Origin: Gulosibacter sediminis
GTDB lineage: Bacteria; Actinomycetota; Actinomycetes; Actinomycetales; Microbacteriaceae
DNA length: 64,000 bases
Assembly: GCF_023370115.1 (NCBI RefSeq)
Contig: NZ_CP097160.1
Location: 496,001-560,000 of the forward strand
Reading direction: 5' to 3'
Both the position numbers and the translations under genes were made by a program. The notes beneath the pieces are model-generated. The model was not told where the DNA came from, did not search any database, and was given only the letters and a program-made list of their open reading frames with translations. Positions 17,787 through 37,237 of the stretch are shown in pieces (position 1 is the stretch's first letter; each line of letters opens with the position of its first letter).

Positions 17787-18899
17787 CTACGCGGATGCGG
17801 GGGTGTTCGGAGTCAAGATGGGTCGGCCGATCGCGCCCGTGCGGAGGTGGGCGATCGCGGCGTTTGCCTCGTCGAGCGGGAAGCTCTCGTCGAGCAGCGC
17901 TTCGAGCTGAAGCTTGCCGGACTTATAGAGGCCGAGGATCTCGGGGATCTGGATGGGGCTGTTCGCGGTGCCGTAGAGCGAGCCGACGAGGCGTCGGTCG
18001 CCCTGCACGAGCACGTTGACAGGCAGCGCGACCTCGTCGCCGACCGCGCCGAGACCCACGACGACCTCGGTGCCGCCGGGCTGCAGCGACTCGAAGCCGG
18101 CACGGATAGTCTGCGAGCGACCGATGGCCTCGAGCACGTAGTGCGCGCCGCCGCCGGTGATTTCACGCACGCGCTCGACGAAGTCTTCCTTGCTCGAGTC
18201 GATCGTGTGGGTCGCGCCGAGCTCGACGGCCTTTTCGAGGCGTGAGGGCACGAGGTCAGACACGATGATCTGCGCCGCGCCGACGAGTTCTGCCGCCATG
18301 ATCGCGGAGAGGCCGACGCCACCGGCGCCGATGACGACGACCGACTTGCCCGCCAGGTCGGGCATGTGGTTGAGGATCGCGCCCATGCCGGTGATGACGG
18401 CGCAGCCGACGATCGCGGCAACCTCGGAAGGGATGCTCGGATCGATTGCGATCAGCGATTCCTGCGAGACGACGGCGCGCTCGGCGAAGACGGAGTCGCC
18501 CATGAGGTGGTGGTAGCGCACGCCATCTTTGCTCAGGCGGGTGCCGCCACGGAGGAGCTCGTTGGTCTGCCCATGAATCTTGCCGAGCTCGCACTGGCCG
18601 GGCATGCCCTTGAGGCAGTATTGGCACTCGCCGCAGCGCGGACGCCACAGCATGATGACCTTGTCGCCGGGAGCGACGCGGGTGACGCCCTCGCCGACCG
18701 ATTCGACGATGCCGGCGCCTTCGTGGCCGAGCACGATCGGCGTCTTCGCATTCAAGCCACCGGTTAGGTAGTGAACGTCGCTGTGGCAGACGCCCGCAGC
18801 CTCGATGCGTACCTGGACTTCGCCGGGGCCTGGCGCATCCAGGTCCAAGTCCTCAAGTACGAGCGGGGAACCCGCCTCATGCATCACCATCGCCCTCAT
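17787..18899 (-). CDS. Zinc-dependent alcohol dehydrogenase
   Basis: A 370-residue medium-chain, zinc-dependent alcohol dehydrogenase related to class III and NDMA-type actinobacterial enzymes. The catalytic zinc region is CHSDVHYLTGG with GHEGAG; the structural zinc cysteines are in CGECQYCLKGMPGQC; the nucleotide loop is VIGAGGVGLSAI. ATG 18899 is chosen because GAGGAGG lies 7 nt upstream; the frame extends to 18923. It is the first structural gene after the iclR gene in the catabolic run. Confidence 0.92.
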   Translation of the reverse strand: MRAMVMHEAGSPLVLEDLDLDAPGPGEVQVRIEAAGVCHSDVHYLTGGLNAKTPIVLGHEGAGIVESVGEGVTRVAPGDKVIMLWRPRCGECQYCLKGMPGQCELGKIHGQTNELLRGGTRLSKDGVRYHHLMGDSVFAERAVVSQESLIAIDPSIPSEVAAIVGCAVITGMGAILNHMPDLAGKSVVVIGAGGVGLSAIMAAELVGAAQIIVSDLVPSRLEKAVELGATHTIDSSKEDFVERVREITGGGAHYVLEAIGRSQTIRAGFESLQPGGTEVVVGLGAVGDEVALPVNVLVQGDRRLVGSLYGTANSPIQIPEILGLYKSGKLQLEALLDESFPLDEANAAIAHLRTGAIGRPILTPNTPASA

Positions 18900-18969
18900 C
18901 TGAGCGCCTCCTCGTTGAATCAATGTGGCGCAGCAACGGCGCTGGCGTCATCGCCACGCGAGCGTTGCT

Positions 18970-21126: not shown

Positions 21127-22641
21127 CTAGCGATCGGTGCCCTGGCGCCACCGCTCGGCGAGCTCACGCTCGCGAGCCGCGACGGCGCGGTGCTCGTCGC
21201 GGGCGCGACGATGGGCGGATGTGCGGCGCAGTCCGAGGTAGCCAATACCGAGCAGCGCGAACCACACCGGCGTCGCGACGAGCCCGACTCTCGTGTCGGC
21301 GTCACCCGTGAACGCCCAGAGGAGGAACACGAAGAACGCGAGCACGACCCATGGCATGACCCGACCAAAGGGCATGCGGAACTTGCTCACCGCGTGCTCC
21401 TGCGGCCGGCGCTTGCGGTAGACGAGGTAGCTGATGAGGATCATGCTCCACACGAACATGAAGCAGAGCGACGACACGGTGGTGACGATTGCGAAGCCGG
21501 TTGACTCGCCGAGTCCGAATGCGAGCATCACCACAGCTGAAAGCAGCACGACACCGGTGAGGAACAGCGCGTTCTGCGGCACGTTGCGCCGCGACAGGCG
21601 CGCGAACAGCGACGGCGCATCCCGCTCGGTCGCGAGGCCGTAGACCATGCGCGAGGTCGAGTAGATACCCGAGTTCGCCGACGACATGGCCGAGGTGAGC
21701 ACGACGAGGTTGACGATCGCGGCGGCCGCCGGCAGCCCCGCCGCGTCGAACACCTGAATGAAGGGGGAGTTGTCGGCGTCGTAGGCAGTCCACGGCATCA
21801 CCGACATGAGCACGACGAGCGAGCCGATGTAGAAGAGCAGGATGCGCACCGGAATCGAGTTGACGGCCTTCGGCAGATTGCGATCCGGGTCTTGTGTCTC
21901 GGCCGCGGTCGTGCCGACGAGCTCGATGCCGACGAAGGCGAACGTTGCGATCTGGAACGCGGCGACGAAGCCCATGAACCCCGTCGAGAAGAAGCCGCCG
22001 TCGGCCCAGAGGTGCGCGAAGCTCGCGCGGCCGTGCTCGCCCTCGTAGCCGAGCAGAATGAGGGCGAGGCCGGCGATGATGAGGGCGACGATCGCGACGA
22101 TTTTCACCATCGCGAACCAGAACTCGGTCTCGCCGAAGGCCCGCACGGTTGGCAGGTTCAAGCCGATGAGAATGAGGATGACGACGAACGCGATGACCGG
22201 CAGCGACCACTCGGGCAGCGCCGGCGCGAGGTGGACGACGTAGACCGACGCGATGACGATGACGTCGGCGACGGCGGTTACGACCCAACAGAACCAGTAC
22301 GTCCAGCCAGTGAAGTAGGCGGCCCACGGGCCGAGCAGGTCGCCGGTCATGTCGGCGAAGTTGCGGTACGACTTCCGCGAGAGCAGTAACTCACCCATCG
22401 CGCGCATGACGAAGTAGAGCATGCCGCCGATGATGAGATAGACGAGCAGCACCGAGGGGCCCGCGACCGAGATCGTCTTGCCCGAGCCCATAAATAGGCC
22501 CGTGCCGATCGCGCCGCCGATGGCGATGAGCTGAATGTGGCGGCTCTGCAGCGCCCGCTTGAGGTGCGGTTGCTCGCCGTGCGGCGAGGCGGCTGCGCTG
22601 ACGGTCGGCGTGGGTGCGGTCGGGTTCGTCTGCGGGCTCAT
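21127..22641 (-). CDS. cycA: D-serine/D-alanine/glycine:H+ symporter, CycA-like
   Basis: A 504-residue amino-acid permease of the APC superfamily with about twelve helices. It closely follows Escherichia coli CycA over long stretches: SRHIQLIAIGGAIGTGLFMG, YFTGWTYWFCWVVT, FAFVGIELVGTTAAET and VVLTSAMSSANSG. It should import glycine, D-alanine and D-serine. The N-terminus carries a Pro/Thr-rich extension. A -10 TACCGT (22650-22655, minus strand) ends 8 nt before the ATG. Confidence 0.92.
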   Translation of the reverse strand: MSPQTNPTAPTPTVSAAASPHGEQPHLKRALQSRHIQLIAIGGAIGTGLFMGSGKTISVAGPSVLLVYLIIGGMLYFVMRAMGELLLSRKSYRNFADMTGDLLGPWAAYFTGWTYWFCWVVTAVADVIVIASVYVVHLAPALPEWSLPVIAFVVILILIGLNLPTVRAFGETEFWFAMVKIVAIVALIIAGLALILLGYEGEHGRASFAHLWADGGFFSTGFMGFVAAFQIATFAFVGIELVGTTAAETQDPDRNLPKAVNSIPVRILLFYIGSLVVLMSVMPWTAYDADNSPFIQVFDAAGLPAAAAIVNLVVLTSAMSSANSGIYSTSRMVYGLATERDAPSLFARLSRRNVPQNALFLTGVVLLSAVVMLAFGLGESTGFAIVTTVSSLCFMFVWSMILISYLVYRKRRPQEHAVSKFRMPFGRVMPWVVLAFFVFLLWAFTGDADTRVGLVATPVWFALLGIGYLGLRRTSAHRRARDEHRAVAARERELAERWRQGTDR

Positions 22642-25122: not shown

Positions 25123-26181
25123 ATGGACACGCAACGGCGCATGGCACAGGAGACTCGGGCGGTCTGGGCAACCGCCGTCTGCTTCGTCGCCGGCCTGCTC
25201 GGGGGAGTGCTCGTGCTCTGGGGCAACCCCCGCCCGGTCGCCGGCGACGGCTCGGTCGCGATGCCGATGGCGCTCGTCGCGGGGTTCGTCGCGGCCGCGG
25301 CCTTCGTCGTGAGCACGGGGATGCACCGCCGCGGCGACCACGCGAGCATGCCCGGCTGGCAGGTCGCGATCTCGTCGCTCTCGGCCGTCGCACTCACGAT
25401 CGCGTTCGCGGGCGTGACCGCGCTCGCGGTGCTGCTCGCGAGCGAGGTGTTCGCCGTTGGGTTGCAGGGGCTCGAACTGCCGGCGGTCGGCGGCGGGATC
25501 CTCACGGGCGTCGCGAGCGCGGTGGGTGGACGCCTCACGTTCGAAGCCGGCATCGAGCTGCGCACAACCGACCTCGCAAACCTGCTGTTCGTCTATCTCA
25601 TCGTCGGCACGCTGTTCGCGATGATTACGGCCGCCGACCCGCGCTGGTGGGAGCTCAATTTTTCGCAGCTCGGCATCGGGGCCGGCGCGTGGGCGTTCAA
25701 CGGCACGCTCGTCGTCGCGGGACTCCTCATCGCAACCGTCGGCTCGTATATCGGCCGCGACCTGCACCGCATCCTCGGCGATGCGGCGCTCGGGCGGATC
25801 GCGTGGGTCGTCGTGCTCTGGGCCGCGACGGGCGTCGCGCTCGCGGGCGTCGGCATGGTGCCGCTCGAACGCAACCTGCTCGGCCACAACCTCTTCGCGT
25901 TGTCGGCGCTCGTGTTGTTCACGGTGGCGGGCGTCGTCACGACGATCGTGATGCCCGGCCCACCGCGGCCGCTCGTGGTGACGTCGGTCGCGATCGCCGC
26001 GCTCATCGTCCTCGCGGCCGTGCTCGCGTTCGGCTTCGACCTCTATTCGGTGACGGCGCTCGAGGCGATCGTGATCGGCCTCGGCCTGCTCTGGCTCACG
26101 ACGCAGGTGCGGATGCTCGCGGTGCTGACACCGCAGGTGACCCGCCCGGCGCGGCGCACGACGATCTTCATCGTTCGGTGA
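25123..26181 (+). CDS. DUF998-like multi-pass membrane protein
   Basis: A 352-residue membrane protein with eight or nine hydrophobic segments, arranged like DUF998 (frag-like) proteins. An internal LANLLFVYLIVGTLFAMITA helix is followed by a short loop with DPRWWELNFSQLG, and another helix has GHNLFALSALVLFTVAG. Function unknown. The start at 25123 has only a weak GGGATG-type signal, so it is not certain. Confidence 0.7.
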   Translation: MDTQRRMAQETRAVWATAVCFVAGLLGGVLVLWGNPRPVAGDGSVAMPMALVAGFVAAAAFVVSTGMHRRGDHASMPGWQVAISSLSAVALTIAFAGVTALAVLLASEVFAVGLQGLELPAVGGGILTGVASAVGGRLTFEAGIELRTTDLANLLFVYLIVGTLFAMITAADPRWWELNFSQLGIGAGAWAFNGTLVVAGLLIATVGSYIGRDLHRILGDAALGRIAWVVVLWAATGVALAGVGMVPLERNLLGHNLFALSALVLFTVAGVVTTIVMPGPPRPLVVTSVAIAALIVLAAVLAFGFDLYSVTALEAIVIGLGLLWLTTQVRMLAVLTPQVTRPARRTTIFIVR

Positions 26182-26340
26182 GTCGCGCGCGCACCAAGGC
26201 TGCCCGCCAAAGTAAACAACCGGCGAAGTTCGCCGAACTGGCGCCGATGCGGGGCCGCCGGTGTCGCTGGCTGGTGTGAGAATAGAGGTTGTCGCATTGA
26301 TCCGACTTCCGCGGATCCCGAAGAAGGAGCACCGGAGAAC

Positions 26341-29300
26341 TTGGATACAGCCCTGCCCCCAGCGCAGTCCTCCCCGAACGCGCAAGAGGTGCTGCGGCGC
26401 GCCAGCCATGCCCCGGCGCCCCGCACGCTGATCGATATTCTGCGGGCCACGGCGGCGGAGCATCCCGACGCCTCGGCGATTGACGACGGCTCGGCGGCGC
26501 TGAGCTACGGCCAGCTGCTCGAGGAGGTCGAGGCGATGGCCGACACCCTGCGTGCCGCGGGCGTTCGGCCCGGTGACCGCGTCGGCGTGCGCGTCGACTC
26601 GGGTTCGCAGCAGCTCTACATCGCGATTCTCGCGATCATGCGCGCCCGCGCGGCCTACGTGCCGGTCGACGCCGATGACACCGAGGAGCGCGCGAACCTC
26701 GTGTTCGGCGAAGCGCACGTCGCCGGCATTATCGGCAACGACGGCTACGTGTCGAGCGAGCGCGAACTCGGCGGCGTTGAGCCGCCCGAGGCGCCGATCG
26801 ACTCGGCCGACCCGGCCCTCGAAGAGGACGCCTGGATTATCTTTACCTCGGGCTCGACCGGCGTGCCGAAGGGCGTTGCCGTGACGCACCGCTCGGCGGC
26901 CGCGTTCGTCGACGCCGAGGCGAACATGTTCCTCCAGCAGGATCCGCTCGGCCCCGGCGACCGCGTGCTCGCGGGCCTCTCGGTCGCGTTCGACGCGTCG
27001 TGCGAGGAGATGTGGCTCGCGTGGCGCCACGGGGCCTGCCTCGTGCCCGCCCCGCGCGCGCTCGTGCGCTCGGGCGAGGACCTCGCGCAGTGGCTCGTGC
27101 GCCAGAGCATCTCGGTGGTCTCGACCGTGCCGACACTCGCCGCGATGTGGCCCGCCGAGTCGATTGAGAACGTGCGCCTGCTCATCTTCGGCGGCGAGGC
27201 CTGCCCGCCCGAGCTTGCCGCCCGCCTCGTCGAGGAGGACCGCGAGGTCTGGAACACCTACGGCCCGACCGAGGCCACCGTCGTCTCGTGCGGCTGCCAG
27301 CTCGACGGCGTCTCGCCGATCAGCATCGGCCTGCCACTCGATGGCTGGGACCTCGCCGTCGTCGACGCCGAGGGCAACCGTGTCGCCCCGGGCGAGCAGG
27401 GTGAGCTCATCATCGGCGGCGTCGGCCTCGCCCACTACCTCGACCCCGCGAAGGACGCCGAAAAGTACGCGCCGATGCCGTCGCTCGGGTGGGAGCGCGC
27501 GTACCGCTCGGGCGATCTCGTGCGCTTCGAAGAGACCGGCCTGATGTTCCTCGGCCGCGCCGACGACCAGGTCAAGGTCGGTGGTCGCCGCATCGAGCTC
27601 GGTGAGGTCGAAAATGCGCTGCAGGATCTGCCCGGCGTGACCGCGGCCGCGGCCGCCGTGCGCAAGAGCGAGGCCGGCGTTGCCGTGCTCGTCGGCTACC
27701 TCGTTGTCGAGGGCAACGGTGGCGAACTCGACCGAGCGCACGCCCGTGACTACCTCGCTTCGCGCCTCGCGGCCGGCGTCATGCCGCTGCTCGCGGTCGT
27801 TGACGAGCTGCCCATCCGCACCTCGGGCAAGGTCGACCGCGCCGCACTGCCGTGGCCGATTCCGGGCGCCGGCGCGGGGGAGGGGCTCGACGCGAATCCC
27901 GATCTCACCGATGCCGAACGCTGGCTCGGCGAGCAGTGGCAGGCCGTGCTCGGCGTGCCGGTGCCGTCGGTGACCGCCGACTTCTTCGACCTTGGTGGCG
28001 GCTCGCTCGCCGCGGCGCAGCTCGTGTCGCGCATCCGCACCCGCGTGCCCGAGTTCACGGTGGCTGACATCTACGACGTGCCGCGCCTCGCCGCCATGGC
28101 GAAGGCCGTCGCGGCGACCGACGCGAACGCCGACCCCGACAGCTACCACCAGCCCCGGCCGACGCCGAAGCGCACGCAGTGGGCGCAGACCCTCGCGGGC
28201 ATCCCGCTGTTTATTGCGAGCGGCGTGCGCTGGCTGCTCTACCTGCTCACCGCGAGCACGATTTTGCACGCGATCGACCCGGTCGCGTTTGCCGTGCTGC
28301 CCGAGGTCTCGTGGGTGGCGCTCATCATTGGTCTCGTCATCGTTTCGACGCCGTTTGGTCGCATGTCGATCGCGGTGCTCGTCTCGCGTCTGCTGCTCGC
28401 GGGCGTGAAGCCCGGCGACTACTCGCGCGGCGGCGGCGTGCACATGCGCCTCTGGCTCGCGGAACAGTTCGCGACGCAGATCGACGCGGTCGGCCTCGCC
28501 GGCGCCCCCTGGGTCTCGGTGTACGCCCGGCTGCTCGGCGCGAAGGTCGATAAGGAGGTCAGCCTCCACTCGCTGCCGCCGATCACCGGCATGCTCGAGG
28601 TCGGCCGCGGCAGCGCGATCGAGCCCGAGGTCGACCTTACCGGCTACTGGATCGACGGCGACCTGCTGCGCCTCGGCGGTGTGCAGATTGGCAACAACGT
28701 CACGGTCGGCGCGCGCTCGACGCTCGCACCGGGCACCCGCGTCGACGACGGCGCCGAGATCGCGCCCGGCTCGGCTGTGTTCGGCCGCGTGAAGTCGGAG
28801 CAGCTCTGGGCGGGCTCGCCCGCGGTGCGCATCGGCGGCGCGAAGGACTCGAAGAAGCGCAAGGCGCTCGAGGGCTGGCCGAGGGGCGTCGCCCCGCAGC
28901 GCCCCGTCTGGAAGCTCGCCTACGGCATCTCATCGGTCGGCCTCGCGCTATTGCCGTTCGTCGCCTTTACGGTCGGCGCGCTGGTGCTCGCACCGGGCAT
29001 CCGCGGCGCCGAGACGCTGCTCGGCGCGTTCGGTGGCGTGATGGCCTGGCTCGTGCCGGCCGTGCTCGCCGCCGGCATCGTCTACGCCGGCGCGGTCGTC
29101 GTGCTCGTGCGCCTGCTGTCGATTGGGATGCGCGAGGGCACCTACCCGGTGCACAGCCGCCAGGGCTGGGCGGCCTGGACCACGGAGCGCCTGCTCGACG
29201 CGGCCCGCAACTTCCTCTTCCCCCTCTACTCGAGCCTGTTCACGCCGATCTGGCTGCGGATGCTCGGGGCCAAGGTCGGCAAGAACGTCGAGGCCTCGAC

Positions 29301-30318
29301 CGTGCTGCTGCTGCCGAAGATGGCACGCATCGACGACGGCGCGTTCCTCGCCGACGACACGATGGTCGCTTCGTACGAGCTGCACCGCGGTTGGCTGCGC
29401 ATTGGCCAGGTGCGCATCGGCAAGAAGGCGTTCCTCGGCAACTCCGGCATGGCCGGCCCCGGCCACAAGGTGCCAAAGAACTCGCTCGTCGCGGTGCTCT
29501 CGGTTGCCCCGTCGAAGGCGAAGTCGGGCTCGTCGTGGCTCGGCTCGCCGGCCACCCGCCTGCGTCGCGTGACGCAGGACGGTGACGACGAGCGCACATA
29601 CAACCCCGGCGGTCGCCTGCGCATCGCGCGCACGCTCTGGGAGCTCTGCCGCATCGTGCCCGTGTTCGTCACCTGCGGCCTCGGGGTCGCGGTGCTGTTC
29701 ACCTTCGCGTGGCTGTGGGACGCGACAGGCCCGCTGTGGACCCTGCTGCTCTCGGGCGTCGTCATGCTCGTCGCCGGTGGCATCGCCGCGCTCATCACGA
29801 CCATCGCGAAGTGGACGATCGTCGGCCCGATCCGCGTTGGCGAGCATCCGCTCTGGTCGAGCTTCGTGTGGCGCACCGAGGTGAGCGACACGTTCACCGA
29901 GATGCTCGCCGCGCCCTGGTTTGCCCGCTCGGCCATCGGCACGCCAGCGATGGCGGTGTGGCTGCGCTCGCTCGGCGTGAAGGTCGGCCACGGCGTCTGG
30001 TGCGACACCTACTGGCTGCCCGAGCCCGACCTCGTCACGCTCGGCGACGGCTCGACCGTGAACCGCGGTTGCGTCGTGCAGACGCACCTGTTCCACGACC
30101 GCATCATGAGCATCGACACCGTCGAGCTCGGCGCAGGCGCGACGCTCGGCCCACACAGCGTGGTGCTGCCCGCCGCGAGCATCGGCGACCACGCGACGGT
30201 CGGCCCCGCGTCGCTCGTCATGCGCGGCGAATCGGTGCCCGTCGGCTCGCGCTGGAGCGGCAACCCCATCGGCCCGTGGCGCGCCGTGAAGGTGCGCGCC
30301 TACCAATCCACCAACTAA
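26341..30318 (+). CDS. Pls/PosA-type membrane NRPS (epsilon-poly-amino-acid synthetase-like)
   Basis: A 1325-residue single-module nonribosomal peptide synthetase. Residues ~25-510 form an adenylation domain (A3 IIFTSGSTG at 166-174; FDASCEEMW near 217; NTYGPTEATV; GRADDQVKVGGRRIELGEVE; catalytic Lys497 in RTSGKVDR). Residues ~520-590 are a carrier domain with the phosphopantetheine Ser555 in LGGGS. There is no condensation or thioesterase domain. Three repeats of a transmembrane pair plus a left-handed beta-helix acyltransferase-like domain follow (TM ~614-693, 860-930, 1094-1154; beta-helix ~754-835, 977-1073, 1207-1320). This is the epsilon-poly-L-lysine synthetase layout. The start is TTG 26341 with AAGGAG upstream. 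A phosphopantetheinyl transferase gene lies nearby. Confidence 0.9.
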   Translation: MDTALPPAQSSPNAQEVLRRASHAPAPRTLIDILRATAAEHPDASAIDDGSAALSYGQLLEEVEAMADTLRAAGVRPGDRVGVRVDSGSQQLYIAILAIMRARAAYVPVDADDTEERANLVFGEAHVAGIIGNDGYVSSERELGGVEPPEAPIDSADPALEEDAWIIFTSGSTGVPKGVAVTHRSAAAFVDAEANMFLQQDPLGPGDRVLAGLSVAFDASCEEMWLAWRHGACLVPAPRALVRSGEDLAQWLVRQSISVVSTVPTLAAMWPAESIENVRLLIFGGEACPPELAARLVEEDREVWNTYGPTEATVVSCGCQLDGVSPISIGLPLDGWDLAVVDAEGNRVAPGEQGELIIGGVGLAHYLDPAKDAEKYAPMPSLGWERAYRSGDLVRFEETGLMFLGRADDQVKVGGRRIELGEVENALQDLPGVTAAAAAVRKSEAGVAVLVGYLVVEGNGGELDRAHARDYLASRLAAGVMPLLAVVDELPIRTSGKVDRAALPWPIPGAGAGEGLDANPDLTDAERWLGEQWQAVLGVPVPSVTADFFDLGGGSLAAAQLVSRIRTRVPEFTVADIYDVPRLAAMAKAVAATDANADPDSYHQPRPTPKRTQWAQTLAGIPLFIASGVRWLLYLLTASTILHAIDPVAFAVLPEVSWVALIIGLVIVSTPFGRMSIAVLVSRLLLAGVKPGDYSRGGGVHMRLWLAEQFATQIDAVGLAGAPWVSVYARLLGAKVDKEVSLHSLPPITGMLEVGRGSAIEPEVDLTGYWIDGDLLRLGGVQIGNNVTVGARSTLAPGTRVDDGAEIAPGSAVFGRVKSEQLWAGSPAVRIGGAKDSKKRKALEGWPRGVAPQRPVWKLAYGISSVGLALLPFVAFTVGALVLAPGIRGAETLLGAFGGVMAWLVPAVLAAGIVYAGAVVVLVRLLSIGMREGTYPVHSRQGWAAWTTERLLDAARNFLFPLYSSLFTPIWLRMLGAKVGKNVEASTVLLLPKMARIDDGAFLADDTMVASYELHRGWLRIGQVRIGKKAFLGNSGMAGPGHKVPKNSLVAVLSVAPSKAKSGSSWLGSPATRLRRVTQDGDDERTYNPGGRLRIARTLWELCRIVPVFVTCGLGVAVLFTFAWLWDATGPLWTLLLSGVVMLVAGGIAALITTIAKWTIVGPIRVGEHPLWSSFVWRTEVSDTFTEMLAAPWFARSAIGTPAMAVWLRSLGVKVGHGVWCDTYWLPEPDLVTLGDGSTVNRGCVVQTHLFHDRIMSIDTVELGAGATLGPHSVVLPAASIGDHATVGPASLVMRGESVPVGSRWSGNPIGPWRAVKVRAYQSTN

Positions 30319-30346
30319 CCGCGCACACGCGCTGAGATACTCCCGA

Positions 30347-31666
30347 ATGAAGTCACTTTCCACGCTGCCCACTGCCTTTCCGCACCCCTATATGCCCGAC
30401 TCGGGCGACGGCCGGTACTCGGTAGAGCACTACGAGCTCGAGCTCGACTACACGCCGCGCACGAATCGGCTCGAGGGCACCGCGACCCTGCGCGTCCTCG
30501 TGCTCGAGGCGACGAAGTCGCTGCGGGTCGACCTGCACGCGCTCAAGGCGTCGAAGATGAAGGTGCGCGGCAAGGTGCACAAACAGTTCTCGCAGGATCG
30601 CCGCAGCGTGCAGCTCAAGTTTGGCGATCGGCTCGAGGCCGGCGCGCGCTTCGAGGTCGAGATCGAGTACGCGGGCCGACCAGGGCCAACCCGTTCGAAG
30701 TGGGGGCAAATCGGTTGGGAGGAGCTCGAGAACGGCGCCCTCGTCGCCTCGCAGCCGACCGGCGCGCCGACCTGGTTTCCGTGCAACGACCGCGTCGACG
30801 ACCGCGCGACCTACGACATCACCTTCACCTGCGACAAGGACTTCTTTGTCGCGGCGACCGGCAAGCCGGGGCGCGTGTCGTCGCGCGGCGGCAAGCGCAC
30901 GTGGCGCTTCGCGAGCTCGGTGCCGACGGCGACCTACCTCGTCGCCGTGCACGTCGGTGAGTACCGCGAGTACAAGCTCGGCACCGGGCGCATCGTCACG
31001 CCGCCCGCCCAGTGGTCGCGGGTGCGCCAGGCGTTCTCGCCGATGCCGAAGATGGTCGAGGTGTTCGAAGACTGGTTCGGCGAGTACCCGCAGGTCGACC
31101 TCACGACGGTCGTGACCGAGGAGGAACTCGAGATTCCGCTCGAGGCCCAGGGCATGGCGACCTTTGGCGTGAACCACTGCGCGCCCGACGAGCAGCGACT
31201 CATCGCGCACGAGCTCGCCCACCAGTGGTTTGGCAACAGCGTCGACATTCGCCAGTGGGCCGACATCTGGCTCAACGAGGGCTTCGCCTGCTACGCCGAA
31301 TGGGTGTGGTCGGAGGCGGCTGGCGGCCGGACGATCGCCGAGTGCGCGCAGCACCACTACGGGCGGCTCGTGCGCGAGCGGCAAGACCTCGTGCTCGCCG
31401 ACCCGGGCGAGAAGCAGCTGTTCGACGACCGCGTCTACAAGCGCGGCGCCCTGCTGCTCGAGTCGCTGCGTCGCACGGTCGGCAACGACGTGTTCCGGGC
31501 CGTGCTGCACCGCTGGGTGACCGAGTACCGCCACCGCCTCGTCGGCACCGAGGACTTCCTCGCGGTGGTCGAGGAGGTCGCGGGCATTCCGCCGCAGGCC
31601 GACCTCTGGAAGGCATGGCTCTACGAAAAGCCCGTGCCCCCGCTGCCACCGGTCACCTCGGCGTAG
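30347..31666 (+). CDS. M1-family zinc metallopeptidase
   Basis: A 439-residue member of the M1 aminopeptidase family, shorter than PepN because only the N-terminal saddle and the catalytic domain are present. The zinc site is H288-E-L-A-H292 with the third ligand E311 in WLNEGFA; QGMATFG sits where GAMEN-type exopeptidase motifs occur. It removes N-terminal residues from peptides. It lies 28 nt after the Pls-like gene and could process the product or confer self-protection; this is inference. Its 3' end overlaps the convergent gene by 14 nt. Confidence 0.9.
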   Translation: MKSLSTLPTAFPHPYMPDSGDGRYSVEHYELELDYTPRTNRLEGTATLRVLVLEATKSLRVDLHALKASKMKVRGKVHKQFSQDRRSVQLKFGDRLEAGARFEVEIEYAGRPGPTRSKWGQIGWEELENGALVASQPTGAPTWFPCNDRVDDRATYDITFTCDKDFFVAATGKPGRVSSRGGKRTWRFASSVPTATYLVAVHVGEYREYKLGTGRIVTPPAQWSRVRQAFSPMPKMVEVFEDWFGEYPQVDLTTVVTEEELEIPLEAQGMATFGVNHCAPDEQRLIAHELAHQWFGNSVDIRQWADIWLNEGFACYAEWVWSEAAGGRTIAECAQHHYGRLVRERQDLVLADPGEKQLFDDRVYKRGALLLESLRRTVGNDVFRAVLHRWVTEYRHRLVGTEDFLAVVEEVAGIPPQADLWKAWLYEKPVPPLPPVTSA

Positions 31667-32216
31667 CGTCGCGCGTTCGCGCGGCGAGGGCCACGACGAT
31701 CGGCCAGCGGTCAGCGTCGGGCCTGCCCGGGCCCACGGGCAGCGTGACGTGCTCGACGGTGAACCCCCGTGCATCCGCTCGCTGCCAGTCGCCGCGCAGG
31801 CCGATGCCGCGCGCCTTTGCGACGGCCTCGAGCGCCGTCCACGTTTGGATGCTCGGTTCGGGCGAGTCGGGCAGCGCCTCGGCGATCGCGGCGCGGGTGC
31901 GCGGCGAGTCGGTCTCGGCATCGATGCCGAACTCCGTAACGCCGAGCGGCGCGACCGCGACGACCGCGACCGGTCCGGCGTAGCTCACGCTCACGCTGAC
32001 CCGCGCGACGCTCGCGCCCGCCGGAGTGACGACCCGCAGCGGGCCGTGCTCGCGGCTGCCGCAGACCGCGCACTCCTGCTCGAAGGCGACGTCGCCGAAT
32101 TCGGGAACGAGCAGCTCTCGCAGCACGCCGCGGGCGACCTCGCGGCGTGACGCGACCGCCGGTCGCGCCCATGCGAGGCGGGCCCCGCCGGGGGTCTCGA
32201 GTTGCTGGGTTTCCAC
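31653..32216 (-). CDS. 4'-phosphopantetheinyl transferase superfamily protein
   Basis: A 187-residue Sfp/AcpT-like enzyme that moves the phosphopantetheine arm from CoA to a carrier-protein serine. The two family motifs are visible: GIDAETDS (Mg2+ ligands) and WTALEAVAKARGIGL (the W-x-x-K/L-E-A-x-x-K-A motif). Its closeness to the Pls-like NRPS suggests that Ser555 of that protein is its substrate. GTG 32216 is the chosen start, 16 nt after the yeiH-like stop; an upstream TTG at 32258 would overlap that gene and is less likely. Confidence 0.85.
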   Translation of the reverse strand: METQQLETPGGARLAWARPAVASRREVARGVLRELLVPEFGDVAFEQECAVCGSREHGPLRVVTPAGASVARVSVSVSYAGPVAVVAVAPLGVTEFGIDAETDSPRTRAAIAEALPDSPEPSIQTWTALEAVAKARGIGLRGDWQRADARGFTVEHVTLPVGPGRPDADRWPIVVALAARTRDATPR

Positions 32217-34946: not shown

Positions 34947-34986
34947 GGCGACGGCCCGCGGTGATTCGCGGGCCGTCGCCGTTTTC
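34947..34986 (+). terminator. Terminator of the FMN reductase gene
   Basis: GGCGACGGCCCGCG and CGCGGGCCGTCGCC pair perfectly over 14 bp around GTGATT, followed by GTTTT. It starts 15 nt past the stop. Confidence 0.85.
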
Positions 34987-35050
34987 GGTGCATTCTGGTT
35001 GGACTTGTGGGTGCACGACGGGAATACTGGTCGGAGTCGACAGGAGCCCC

Positions 35051-37237
35051 ATGAGCCACGCGAATTCGTCTGCGACGACCGCCGCCATCCCGCGCTGGCT
35101 GAGGGTGATCCTTCCCGCCGCGATCATCCTGCTCTGGTTACTCGGGGCGAGCATCGGAGGCCCGTACTTCGGCAAAGTGAGCGAGGTCTCGTCGAACGAC
35201 CAAACCGCCTACCTACCCGACTCAGCCGACGCAACGCGGGTGCAGCAGCTTGCGAGCGGCTTCACCGACGACGACGTGCTGCCGGCGGTGGTCGTGTTCA
35301 CGTCGTCCACCGAGTTGGATGCGCAGCAGCTCGACACTCTTGAGGCCGCGGTGGCCGACTTGTCGCAGCTCGACGCGGTGCCCGACGACATTTCGCCGCT
35401 GATACCCTCCGACGACGGCCTCGCGGCGCAGGCATTCGTACCGATCTCGGCCGACGCCGAGATCGGTGACGTCGTGGCCGAACTCTCCGAGCGGCTCGAG
35501 GCCGCCGCGCCCGCGGGAGTCACGGCCTACGTCACCGGCCCGGCCGGGTTTACAGCCGACCTCAGCGCGGCGTTCTCGGGCATCGACGGCGTGCTGCTGC
35601 TCGTGGCGCTCCTCGCCGTCTTCGTGATCCTCATCGTCGTCTACCGCTCGCTCCTGCTGCCGATCGCGGTGCTTGCGACGAGCGTGTTTGCGCTCACGGT
35701 CGCCCTGCTCACCGTCTGGTGGCTCGCGAAGGCAGGCGTGCTGCTGCTGAGCGGCCAGACCCAGGGCATCCTGTTCATCCTCGTCATCGGCGCCGCGACC
35801 GACTATTCGCTGCTCTATGTCTCGCGCTTCCGCGAAGAGCTGCGCCACACGAACGACAAATGGCGGGCCACCAAGAACTCGCTGCGCGGCGCGTTCGAGC
35901 CGATCCTGGCCTCGGGTGGCACCGTCATCGCGGGCCTGCTCTGCCTGCTGCTCAGCGACCTCAAGTCGAACAGCACGCTCGGCCCGGTTGCCGCGATCGG
36001 CATCGCCTTCGCCATGCTCGCAGCGCTCACGCTGCTGCCGGCCGTGCTCTACGCGTTCGGGCGCGCGGCATTCTGGCCGCGCCGACCGAAGTACGAGCCG
36101 GTGCACGCCGCGGGCGCCGACGCCGCGGCGAGCGAGGCCGTGACCGGCGGGTGGGCCGGCCTCGGCCGCCGCATCCAGCGCCGACCGCGGGCGGTCTGGA
36201 TCGTCACCTCGCTCGTGCTGCTCGCCGGCGCGCTCGGCGTGACCCAGCTGCAGGCGCACGGCGTGCCGCAGTCCGACCTCGTGCTCGTGAGCTCGGATGC
36301 GCGCGACGGCCAGACCGCGCTCGGCGAGCACTTCCCGGGTGGTTCGGGCAGCCCCGTGAACGTCATCGTCGACGCCGACTCGCTGCAGCAGGCAGCCGAC
36401 GTGCTGCTCGACCGCGACGGCATCGCGAGCGTCACCGTCGCGAGCGGCGACAGCGCATCCGGCTCGGCGACCGTGACGGCCGACGGCATCTCCGCAGCGG
36501 GCCCACCCGGCACCCCAACGCCCGAGCCGACGGTCGTCGACGGCCACGTGCTGCTCCAGGGCACGCTCACCGACGCGCCCGACTCGGCCGCCGCCGAGAC
36601 CACCGTGACCGAGGTGCGCGCCGCCTACGCCGACGCGGGCCTCGACGCGCTCGTCGGCGGCGTCACCGCGACGGCCATCGACACGAACGCCGCATCGATT
36701 CACGACCGCAACCTCATCATCCCCGCGGTGCTCGTGGTGATCCTGCTCATCCTCATGCTGCTGCTGCGGTCAGTGCTCGCGCCGGTGTTGCTCGTGCTCA
36801 CGACCGTGCTGTCGTTCTTCGCCGCGCTCGGCGTCGCGGCGCTCGTGTTTAACGGGGTGTTCCAGTTCCCGGGTGCCGACGCCGCCGTGCCGCTTTACGG
36901 CTTCGTGTTCCTCGTCGCGCTCGGCATCGACTACAACATCTTCCTCATGACGCGCGTGCGCGAGGAGACGCTGCGGGTCGGCACCCGCGCGGGCATCCTG
37001 CGGGGACTCGCGGCCACGGGCGGCGTCATCACCTCGGCTGGCCTCGTGCTCGCGGCGACGTTCGCGGCGCTCGCCGTCATCCCCATCCTCTTCCTCGCCC
37101 AAATCGCGTTCATCGTGGCGTTCGGAGTTCTGCTCGATACCTTCTTGGTACGCGCCGTGCTCGTGCCTGCGCTCTTCACTGACGTAGGCCGCGCCATCTG
37201 GTGGCCCTCGAAACTCGCTCGGAAGGAAGACCAATGA
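35051..37237 (+). CDS. MMPL-family RND transporter
   Basis: A 728-residue RND-superfamily exporter of the MMPL type with twelve predicted helices in two halves, each preceded by a large periplasmic-side loop. Visible features include a first helix at ~15-35, YRSLLLPIAVLATSVFALTVA, IGAATDYSLLYVSRFREEL (proton-relay Asp-Tyr pair), and in the second half ALGIDYNIFLMTRVREE. Related proteins export lipids or act in efflux. The cargo is unknown. GGAGC precedes ATG 35051. It overlaps the next gene by ATGA. Confidence 0.92.
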   Translation: MSHANSSATTAAIPRWLRVILPAAIILLWLLGASIGGPYFGKVSEVSSNDQTAYLPDSADATRVQQLASGFTDDDVLPAVVVFTSSTELDAQQLDTLEAAVADLSQLDAVPDDISPLIPSDDGLAAQAFVPISADAEIGDVVAELSERLEAAAPAGVTAYVTGPAGFTADLSAAFSGIDGVLLLVALLAVFVILIVVYRSLLLPIAVLATSVFALTVALLTVWWLAKAGVLLLSGQTQGILFILVIGAATDYSLLYVSRFREELRHTNDKWRATKNSLRGAFEPILASGGTVIAGLLCLLLSDLKSNSTLGPVAAIGIAFAMLAALTLLPAVLYAFGRAAFWPRRPKYEPVHAAGADAAASEAVTGGWAGLGRRIQRRPRAVWIVTSLVLLAGALGVTQLQAHGVPQSDLVLVSSDARDGQTALGEHFPGGSGSPVNVIVDADSLQQAADVLLDRDGIASVTVASGDSASGSATVTADGISAAGPPGTPTPEPTVVDGHVLLQGTLTDAPDSAAAETTVTEVRAAYADAGLDALVGGVTATAIDTNAASIHDRNLIIPAVLVVILLILMLLLRSVLAPVLLVLTTVLSFFAALGVAALVFNGVFQFPGADAAVPLYGFVFLVALGIDYNIFLMTRVREETLRVGTRAGILRGLAATGGVITSAGLVLAATFAALAVIPILFLAQIAFIVAFGVLLDTFLVRAVLVPALFTDVGRAIWWPSKLARKEDQ

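What the first reader, a model, noticed from the sequence alone, without database searches (positions are those of the whole stretch)
26341..32216. Possible cationic homopoly(amino acid) locus: Pls-type NRPS, M1 peptidase and phosphopantetheinyl transferase
The 1325-residue protein has the adenylation-carrier-(TM plus beta-helix)x3 layout of epsilon-poly-L-lysine synthetase and has no condensation or thioesterase domain. Aligning its adenylation core to GrsA by eye gives the pocket residues D-A-E-S-I-G-T-V-V-K, which differ at two positions from the lysine code DAESIGSVCK as I remember it for bacitracin synthetase. A phosphopantetheinyl transferase gene lies two genes away and could prime Ser555. 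The M1 peptidase between them might process the product. Together they predict a membrane-bound system making a polymer of lysine or a similar diamino acid.
Basis: partly seen in the sequence, partly recalled or inferred. Interest (0 to 1): 0.75.

Follow-up and report, generated by a model that had tools for sequence, protein, structure and literature searches.

The report
Epsilon-polylysine synthetase, peptidase and activating enzyme
This locus encodes the known kind of enzyme pair that makes and breaks down the natural antimicrobial epsilon-poly-lysine, plus a neighbouring activating enzyme that tends to come and go with it across related bacteria, so it is a further member of a known system with one or two features that look new.

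Summary
26341-30318 encodes a 1325-aa Pls/PosA-family synthetase (698 bits), followed by an M1 peptidase and a convergent phosphopantetheinyl transferase (PPTase). Its pocket, DAESIGTVVK, is identical to solved Streptomyces albulus epsilon-poly-L-lysine synthase (7wew) and to all 112 similarity-chosen sequences aligned. The M1 peptidase follows pls in 80 of 80 related loci; in the S. albulus-like locus L121 it overlaps pls by 4 bp, as published for PldII, the epsilon-PL-degrading peptidase. The pls-peptidase pair in coryneforms, Microbacterium homologues included, is in print (PMC8117764). Two points I did not see in print: (1) the PPTase tracks Pls: among 249 genomes of the window's family it is in 97 of 99 with Pls and 11 of 150 without; within 20 mixed genera, 35 of 35 versus 6 of 39; (2) the window peptidase and its 80 relatives show no hydrophobic export-like N terminus, which the L121 enzyme has. 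The PPTase was not found near pls in Mycobacteriales (0 of 37) or in 8 other loci. Most likely: an epsilon-poly-L-lysine synthetase, its degrading peptidase and a largely dedicated PPTase. Production is untested.

The parts
26341..30318 (+). pls-type NRPS-like synthetase, 1325 aa: adenylation (about 30-505), carrier (528-590, S555), membrane condensation region (615-1310) of three helix-pair plus beta-helix units
26325..26330 (+). AAGGAG ribosome-binding-like site 10 nt before the TTG start
   Evidence: read from the sequence
30347..31666 (+). M1 zinc metallopeptidase (PldII-like), HELAH-x18-E zinc site (H288 E289 H292 E311), no hydrophobic segment found
31653..32216 (-). Sfp-type 4'-phosphopantetheinyl transferase, 187 aa, convergent with the operon; D99-x-E101 and W126-x3-E130-x3-K134 present in this copy

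Best explanation
It is an epsilon-poly-L-lysine synthetase operon. The PPTase puts the phosphopantetheine arm on S555 of the carrier domain. The adenylation domain activates L-lysine and loads it on that arm. The membrane region of three beta-helix acyltransferase-like units lets the epsilon-amine of another lysine (or chain) attack the thioester repeatedly, giving an isopeptide polymer. The M1 peptidase cleaves the polymer and limits self-harm; here it lacks an export-like N terminus, so it more likely acts inside the cell. Shown here: domain layout, pocket identity, gene linkage, PPTase co-occurrence. Inferred from characterised relatives: lysine activation, polymer formation, degradation by the M1 enzyme. 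Inferred from co-occurrence only: that this PPTase primes this carrier. Inferred from hydropathy only: where the peptidase acts.
For: TIGR02353 698 bits. Best solved match: S. albulus epsilon-poly-L-lysine synthase 7wew, E 2.6e-185, 297 of 472 identical. Pocket identical in 112 of 112. Published: alanine at pocket position 2 marks lysine, methionine ornithine, phenylalanine diaminopropionate/diaminobutyrate (PMC10522769, passages); [quoted passage not shown] coelicolor (PMC8117764, parts 1-2 of 4); pldII lies beside pls in S. albulus with a 4-bp overlap (PMC4361855, passages). In L121, whose adenylation domain is 78% identical to 7wew, the pls stop and the M1 start share ATGA, a 4-bp overlap, so the M1 gene stands where pldII is described. 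M1 beside pls in 80 of 80 loci and 8 of 8 further loci. PPTase: 97 of 99 Pls+ versus 11 of 150 Pls- genomes; control with the general PF01648 model, two or more matches in 85 of 99 versus 19 of 150; mixed genera 35 of 35 versus 6 of 39. Own genome: two PF00550 carriers, Pls and an ACP beside a FabH-like ORF, and two PF01648 matches (places not printed). PosA, a family member, was treated with Sfp and CoA in vitro (PMC10522769 methods passage).
Against: No product or enzyme activity was measured. C. variabile made no detectable epsilon-PL, nor did its gene in C. glutamicum (PMC8117764). The A1 PPTase model was built from PPTases beside pls and so favours such copies; the PF01648 contrast is weaker. 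The PPTase is absent from the flanks held in 37 of 37 Mycobacteriales loci, in 5 of 43 others (L059 ends soon after the peptidase) and in 8 of 8 further loci, one of them from the window's own order, so it is not a general part of the system. The D-x-E glutamate is replaced in 7 of 38 PPTases of A1, and the lysine before E130, present in 18 of 38, is L in the window. Of 11 PPTase+/Pls- genomes, 5 have no adenylation domain near the PPTase at the limits used. Fisher values ignore phylogeny. PldII: a homology model in PMC9223678 puts two zinc ions at residues that are not an HExxH site (passages), which does not fit the M1 motif; I did not have the S. albulus PldII sequence itself. Reports on PldII conflict: repression changed polymer length in PMC9223678, inactivation had no effect according to PMC8506220 (passages).
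Confidence: 0.8

Rival explanations
1. The synthetase makes a polymer of another diamino acid (ornithine, diaminobutyrate, diaminopropionate or beta-lysine).
For: All are made by the same architecture; some pocket letters are shared across the family (PMC10522769, passages).
Against: Pocket identical at ten of ten positions to 7wew; position 2 is A, not M or F; the published beta-lysine code DGESISVVNK differs. No diamino-acid or aminomutase gene was recognised among the neighbouring ORFs scanned (10, 8, some in both), though not every ORF was scanned.
Confidence: 0.05
2. Lysine is activated but transferred to an envelope component or kept as short or intracellular chains, so the product is not a free secreted antimicrobial polymer.
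For: C. variabile gave no detectable free epsilon-PL in culture (PMC8117764); the enzyme is widespread, in 99 of 249 family genomes and, with the S. albulus adenylation domain as query, 95 of 394 class genomes; the peptidase has no export-like hydrophobic N terminus in 81 of 81 cases.
Against: The C. variabile enzyme made free epsilon-PL of 26-35 residues in S. coelicolor; the peptidase linkage (80 of 80) fits a peptide-bonded product.
Confidence: 0.1
3. The PPTase is a general NRPS/PKS activator whose place beside pls is incidental.
For: Of 11 PPTase+/Pls- genomes, 6 have another adenylation domain within about 8 kb of the PPTase (5 over the TIGR01733 cut-off, 1 below, beside a PPTase match with a stop), so the family serves other synthetases too. 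Some Pls+ genomes hold more than one PPTase match.
Against: Presence tracks Pls within genera (35 of 35 versus 6 of 39); in the window's genome no other NRPS-type carrier was found and Pls is the only TIGR01733 match at E<=1e-60.
Confidence: 0.15

Closest known systems
Epsilon-poly-L-lysine synthetase Pls and PldII of Streptomyces albulus
   Same: Adenylation-carrier-membrane condensation layout; identical ten-residue pocket (7wew); metallopeptidase gene directly downstream
   Different: Window adenylation domain is 63% identical to 7wew (297 of 472); pls and peptidase are 28 nt apart here, overlapping by 4 bp in S. albulus (PMC4361855) and in L121; the L121 peptidase begins with an export-like (twin-arginine plus hydrophobic) N terminus, the window one does not; no PPTase found in the L121 stretch
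Pls of Corynebacterium variabile and coryneform homologues (PMC8117764)
   Same: Same architecture and peptidase linkage; the survey already lists Microbacterium among genera with homologues
   Different: A PPTase gene beside the pair is not mentioned in that text (word search; figures not held)
PosA, delta-poly-L-ornithine synthetase of Acinetobacter baumannii (PMC10522769)
   Same: Same family name and modelled condensation region of three beta-helices
   Different: Methionine at pocket position 2, single-gene operon, ornithine substrate
M1 zinc metalloprotease of PDB entries 6a8z/6iff
   Same: Closest solved match of the peptidase (E 7e-48, residues 16-436 of 439)
   Different: Nothing read here says that it acts on epsilon-PL
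Sfp-type PPTases (Sfp, PptT)
   Same: Predicted fold; D-x-E and WxxxExxxK motifs (motifs recalled) present in the window copy
   Different: 187 aa, strongly diverged; in this family of bacteria its gene tracks pls

Membership tests
Pls/PosA cationic homopoly(amino acid) synthetases (TIGR02353) | A-T followed by the ~700-residue terminal domain; no C or TE domain | tested here: met
   698 bits over cut-off 423, positions 2-695 of 695; no C/TE family in the Pfam scan
Pls/PosA cationic homopoly(amino acid) synthetases (TIGR02353) | Six TM helices in three pairs with three acyltransferase-like beta-helices | tested here: met
   model pLDDT 82.0, pTM 0.87, first beta-helix weak; hydropathy; best Foldseek matches are hexapeptide acyltransferases, query TM at most 0.17 in the 50 rows listed
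Epsilon-poly-L-lysine synthetase (Pls) | Lysine pocket of Pls | tested here: met
   DAESIGTVVK identical to 7wew
Epsilon-poly-L-lysine synthetase (Pls) | L-lysine activation and epsilon-PL product | not testable with these tools
   needs enzyme assay and mass spectrometry
PldII epsilon-PL-degrading peptidase | Metallopeptidase gene directly downstream of pls | tested here: met
   80 of 80; in L121 an M1 gene overlapping pls by 4 bp, 37% identical to the window's
PldII epsilon-PL-degrading peptidase | Located at the exterior of the membrane (PMC9223678, passage) | tested here: inconclusive
   no hydrophobic N-terminal stretch in the window or 80 loci by a simple hydropathy measure; present in L121. 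No signal-peptide predictor was run
PldII epsilon-PL-degrading peptidase | Hydrolysis of epsilon-PL | not testable with these tools
   needs an assay; the S. albulus PldII sequence itself was not in hand
Sfp-type PPTase | Fold and metal/CoA motifs | tested here: met
   profile to Sfp E 7e-10; the eight Foldseek matches at E<=0.001 are Sfp-type PPTases; D99, W126, E130, K134 invariant in 38 of 38, E at position 101 in 31 of 38
Sfp-type PPTase | PF01648 over curated cut-off for the window copy | tested here: not met
   20.5 bits versus 25; 24 of 38 members match at E<=0.001. I read this as divergence, given

The most novel reading that the evidence does not exclude
In Micrococcales the epsilon-poly-lysine system carries its own activator: a PPTase whose main or only client is Pls, so that priming of S555 is the on-switch, and the linked peptidase works inside the cell rather than outside. 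This would help explain why a pls gene can be silent and why a transplanted pls (as in C. glutamicum) can be expressed yet inactive, and would point to an intracellular or envelope role of the polymer besides secretion. Joint presence and absence of pls and PPTase across many genera supports the pairing; the switch and the location have no direct test.
Probability: 0.2. Interest if true: 0.5.

Novelty: new member of a known kind. Interest (0 to 1): 0.33.

Why it matters
Epsilon-poly-lysine is a commercial food preservative, and C. variabile, the coryneform tested in PMC8117764, was silent in culture. If the linked PPTase is needed to prime Pls in these bacteria, supplying it is a simple, testable reason why native or transplanted pls genes fail, and the pls-peptidase-PPTase trio may mark functional loci better than pls alone.

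Tried and rejected
My first pocket extraction took the wrong residue for the third position and left minus-strand loci unturned; repeated correctly.

Wider operon: of 16 window genes compared with the 80 loci by tblastn, only pls and the M1 gene recur in all; an alcohol dehydrogenase homologue occurs in 14 of 43 (masking on, E<=1e-8; repeated without masking at E<=1e-5 with much the same picture). tblastn with the diverged window PPTase finds only 0 of 43 and 10 of 43; the iterated profile, which was trained on what it found, gives 38 of 43 and is the one used. A weak homologue of another neighbour could be missed in the same way. A lysine permease beside pls was considered: the permease at 21127-22641 is closest to D-serine/D-alanine/glycine transporters, below that model's cut-off, and was not seen near pls elsewhere.

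Exceptions to the Pls-PPTase pairing: G225 is 82% complete with Pls matched only over 2-496 of 695; G254 has two PF01648 matches. Of the 11 PPTase+/Pls- genomes, G026, G141, G150 and G246 had no TIGR01733 match at E<=1e-60 and G088 only a weak distant one. The 20 Pls-/PPTase- control genomes were picked by hand, not at random; 0 of 20 passed the TIGR01733 cut-off, 2 had weaker matches. The 8 loci were picked by hand from the 30.

Not done: species naming, trees of the three genes, an M1 search over whole genomes, a signal-peptide predictor, inspection of model coordinates.

Full report
What is there. The window lies at 496001-560000 of a single 2.75 Mb contig, 64-73% G+C in 2-kb steps. The closest named loci are Microbacterium (best segments up to 74% identity), so I take the organism for a member of Microbacteriaceae; I could not name it.

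The synthetase. It matches TIGR02353, the Pls/PosA family, at 698 bits over the full model. The best solved structure by sequence is 7wew, the adenylation domain of S. albulus epsilon-poly-L-lysine synthase (E 2.6e-185); 297 of 472 aligned residues are identical. These were chosen by similarity, so the uniformity is partly selection; the identity with 7wew is the point. In the PosA paper (passages and section 13 read) alanine at position 2 goes with lysine, methionine with ornithine, phenylalanine with diaminopropionate and diaminobutyrate. So lysine is the predicted substrate.

The membrane region. A model of residues 598-1325 on a 38-sequence alignment has pLDDT 82.0 and pTM 0.87, with the first beta-helix region weak: three units, each with two long helices, a further helix and a beta-helix, much as already modelled for PosA. 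Foldseek's best matches are hexapeptide acyltransferases (best E 3.2e-4, query TM-scores at most 0.17 in the 50 rows listed), so no listed structure covers the whole. The third unit holds an invariant run Q1247-T-H-L-F-H-D-R1254 in the 84 sequences longer than 1250 residues; that a histidine there is catalytic is my inference.

The peptidase. An M1 peptidase gene follows pls on the same strand in 80 of 80 loci, its earliest possible start within 250 nt of the pls stop in 76, and in the 8 further loci fetched. One of these, L121, has an adenylation domain 78% identical to 7wew; there the pls stop and the peptidase start share ATGA, the 4-bp overlap reported for pls and pldII in S. albulus (PMC4361855, passages). 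The zinc motif is kept. PldII degrades epsilon-PL and is described as needed for self-protection (PMC9223678, passages). Against this: that paper's homology model has two zinc ions at residues that are not an HExxH site, a review says that inactivating Pld and PldII changed neither production nor polymer length (PMC8506220, passages), and I did not hold the S. albulus PldII sequence. A difference: L121's peptidase begins with an arginine pair and a hydrophobic stretch, like an export signal, while a simple hydropathy measure finds no such stretch in the window peptidase, in any of the 80 loci, or in 7 of the 8 further loci. Jiang and co-workers (PMC8117764, parts 1-2 of 4 read) showed that a C. 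variabile Pls makes epsilon-PL in S. coelicolor, that it sits with a peptidase gene, and that homologues occur in Microbacterium among others. The core of the finding is therefore known.

The PPTase. It is a diverged Sfp-type enzyme: PF01648 below cut-off in the window copy (20.5 versus 25), but the family profile hits Sfp (E 7e-10) and the model (pLDDT 89.3) best matches Sfp with CoA and a carrier protein. D99, W126, E130 and K134 are invariant in the 38 aligned members; E101 is kept in 31 of 38. An iterated profile search of the 80 loci finds it in 38: 38 of 43 outside Mycobacteriales and 0 of 37 inside (grouping by me from the record titles). In 35 of the 38 it lies beyond the peptidase on the other strand; in L041, L077 and L079 it lies upstream of or at the start of pls. 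It was not found in the 8 further loci. In the window's genus 6 of 11 genomes have Pls; all 6 have PPTase matches (one, G007, in pieces with a stop) and one Pls- genome has a weak match.

Co-occurrence. In 249 genomes of the window's family, Pls (TIGR02353, E<=1e-50) is in 99 and the PPTase (alignment A1, E<=1e-5) in 108: both 97, Pls only 2, PPTase only 11, neither 139; in 80 of the 99 the PPTase is convergent 1-3 kb beyond the Pls terminal domain, in 89 within 12 kb. Because A1 was built from PPTases beside pls, I repeated with the general PF01648 model: two or more matches (AcpS plus another, by inference) in 85 of 99 versus 19 of 150. To reduce shared ancestry I looked within the 20 genera that hold both Pls+ and Pls- genomes: PPTase in 35 of 35 Pls+ and 6 of 39 Pls-; the share was higher in Pls+ in 18 genera, lower in none, equal in 2. 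Of the 11 PPTase+/Pls- genomes, 6 have another adenylation domain within about 8 kb of the PPTase (5 over the model cut-off), 5 do not; 0 of 20 hand-picked Pls-/PPTase- genomes passed that cut-off. This fits a PPTase that follows carrier-bearing synthetases, Pls chief among them. In the window's genome PF00550 finds only two carriers, Pls and a small ACP beside a FabH-like ORF.

Reading. The best account is an epsilon-poly-L-lysine synthetase with its degrading peptidase, plus a PPTase that mainly or only serves Pls. PosA was treated with Sfp and CoA in vitro, so a PPTase is expected to matter. I found no mention of a PPTase beside pls: word search of PMC8117764 and listings of library searches, of which I followed PMC4361855 and PMC4668381 by passage. 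Subscription papers and figures are not held, so this is weak evidence of novelty.

Limits. No chemistry was possible. The counts are not corrected for phylogeny beyond the within-genus comparison. C. variabile did not make detectable epsilon-PL in culture and neither did its gene in C. glutamicum, so presence of the operon does not prove production.

Noticed in passing
17787-18923 (-): NDMA/mycothiol-type alcohol dehydrogenase (below model cut-offs); homologues occur in the pls flanks of 14 of 43 non-Mycobacteriales loci, possibly an older shared neighbourhood.
   Followed up: no
21127-22641 (-): Amino acid permease closest to D-serine/D-alanine/glycine transporters, below that model's cut-off; not seen near pls in the 80 loci.
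   Followed up: partly
25123-26181 (+): DUF998 membrane protein directly upstream of pls; no tblastn match in the flanks of the 80 loci at E<=1e-5 without masking.
   Followed up: partly
34961-37237 (+): MMPL family transporter, about 2.7 kb beyond the PPTase; no match near pls in the 80 loci.
   Followed up: partly
30347-31666 (+), residues 264-275 of the peptidase: The exopeptidase motif GxMEN (recalled) of M1 enzymes reads PLEAQGMATFG here, with E266 near-invariant in the 89 aligned peptidases; this may relate to the endo-type action reported for PldII.
   Followed up: no
L121 10528-11934: The S. albulus-like peptidase starts with a twin-arginine, export-like N terminus, which the window peptidase and its 80 relatives lack by hydropathy.
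   Followed up: partly
genomes G080, G142, G194: Three genomes of one genus (g71) carry two TIGR02353 synthetases each.
   Followed up: no
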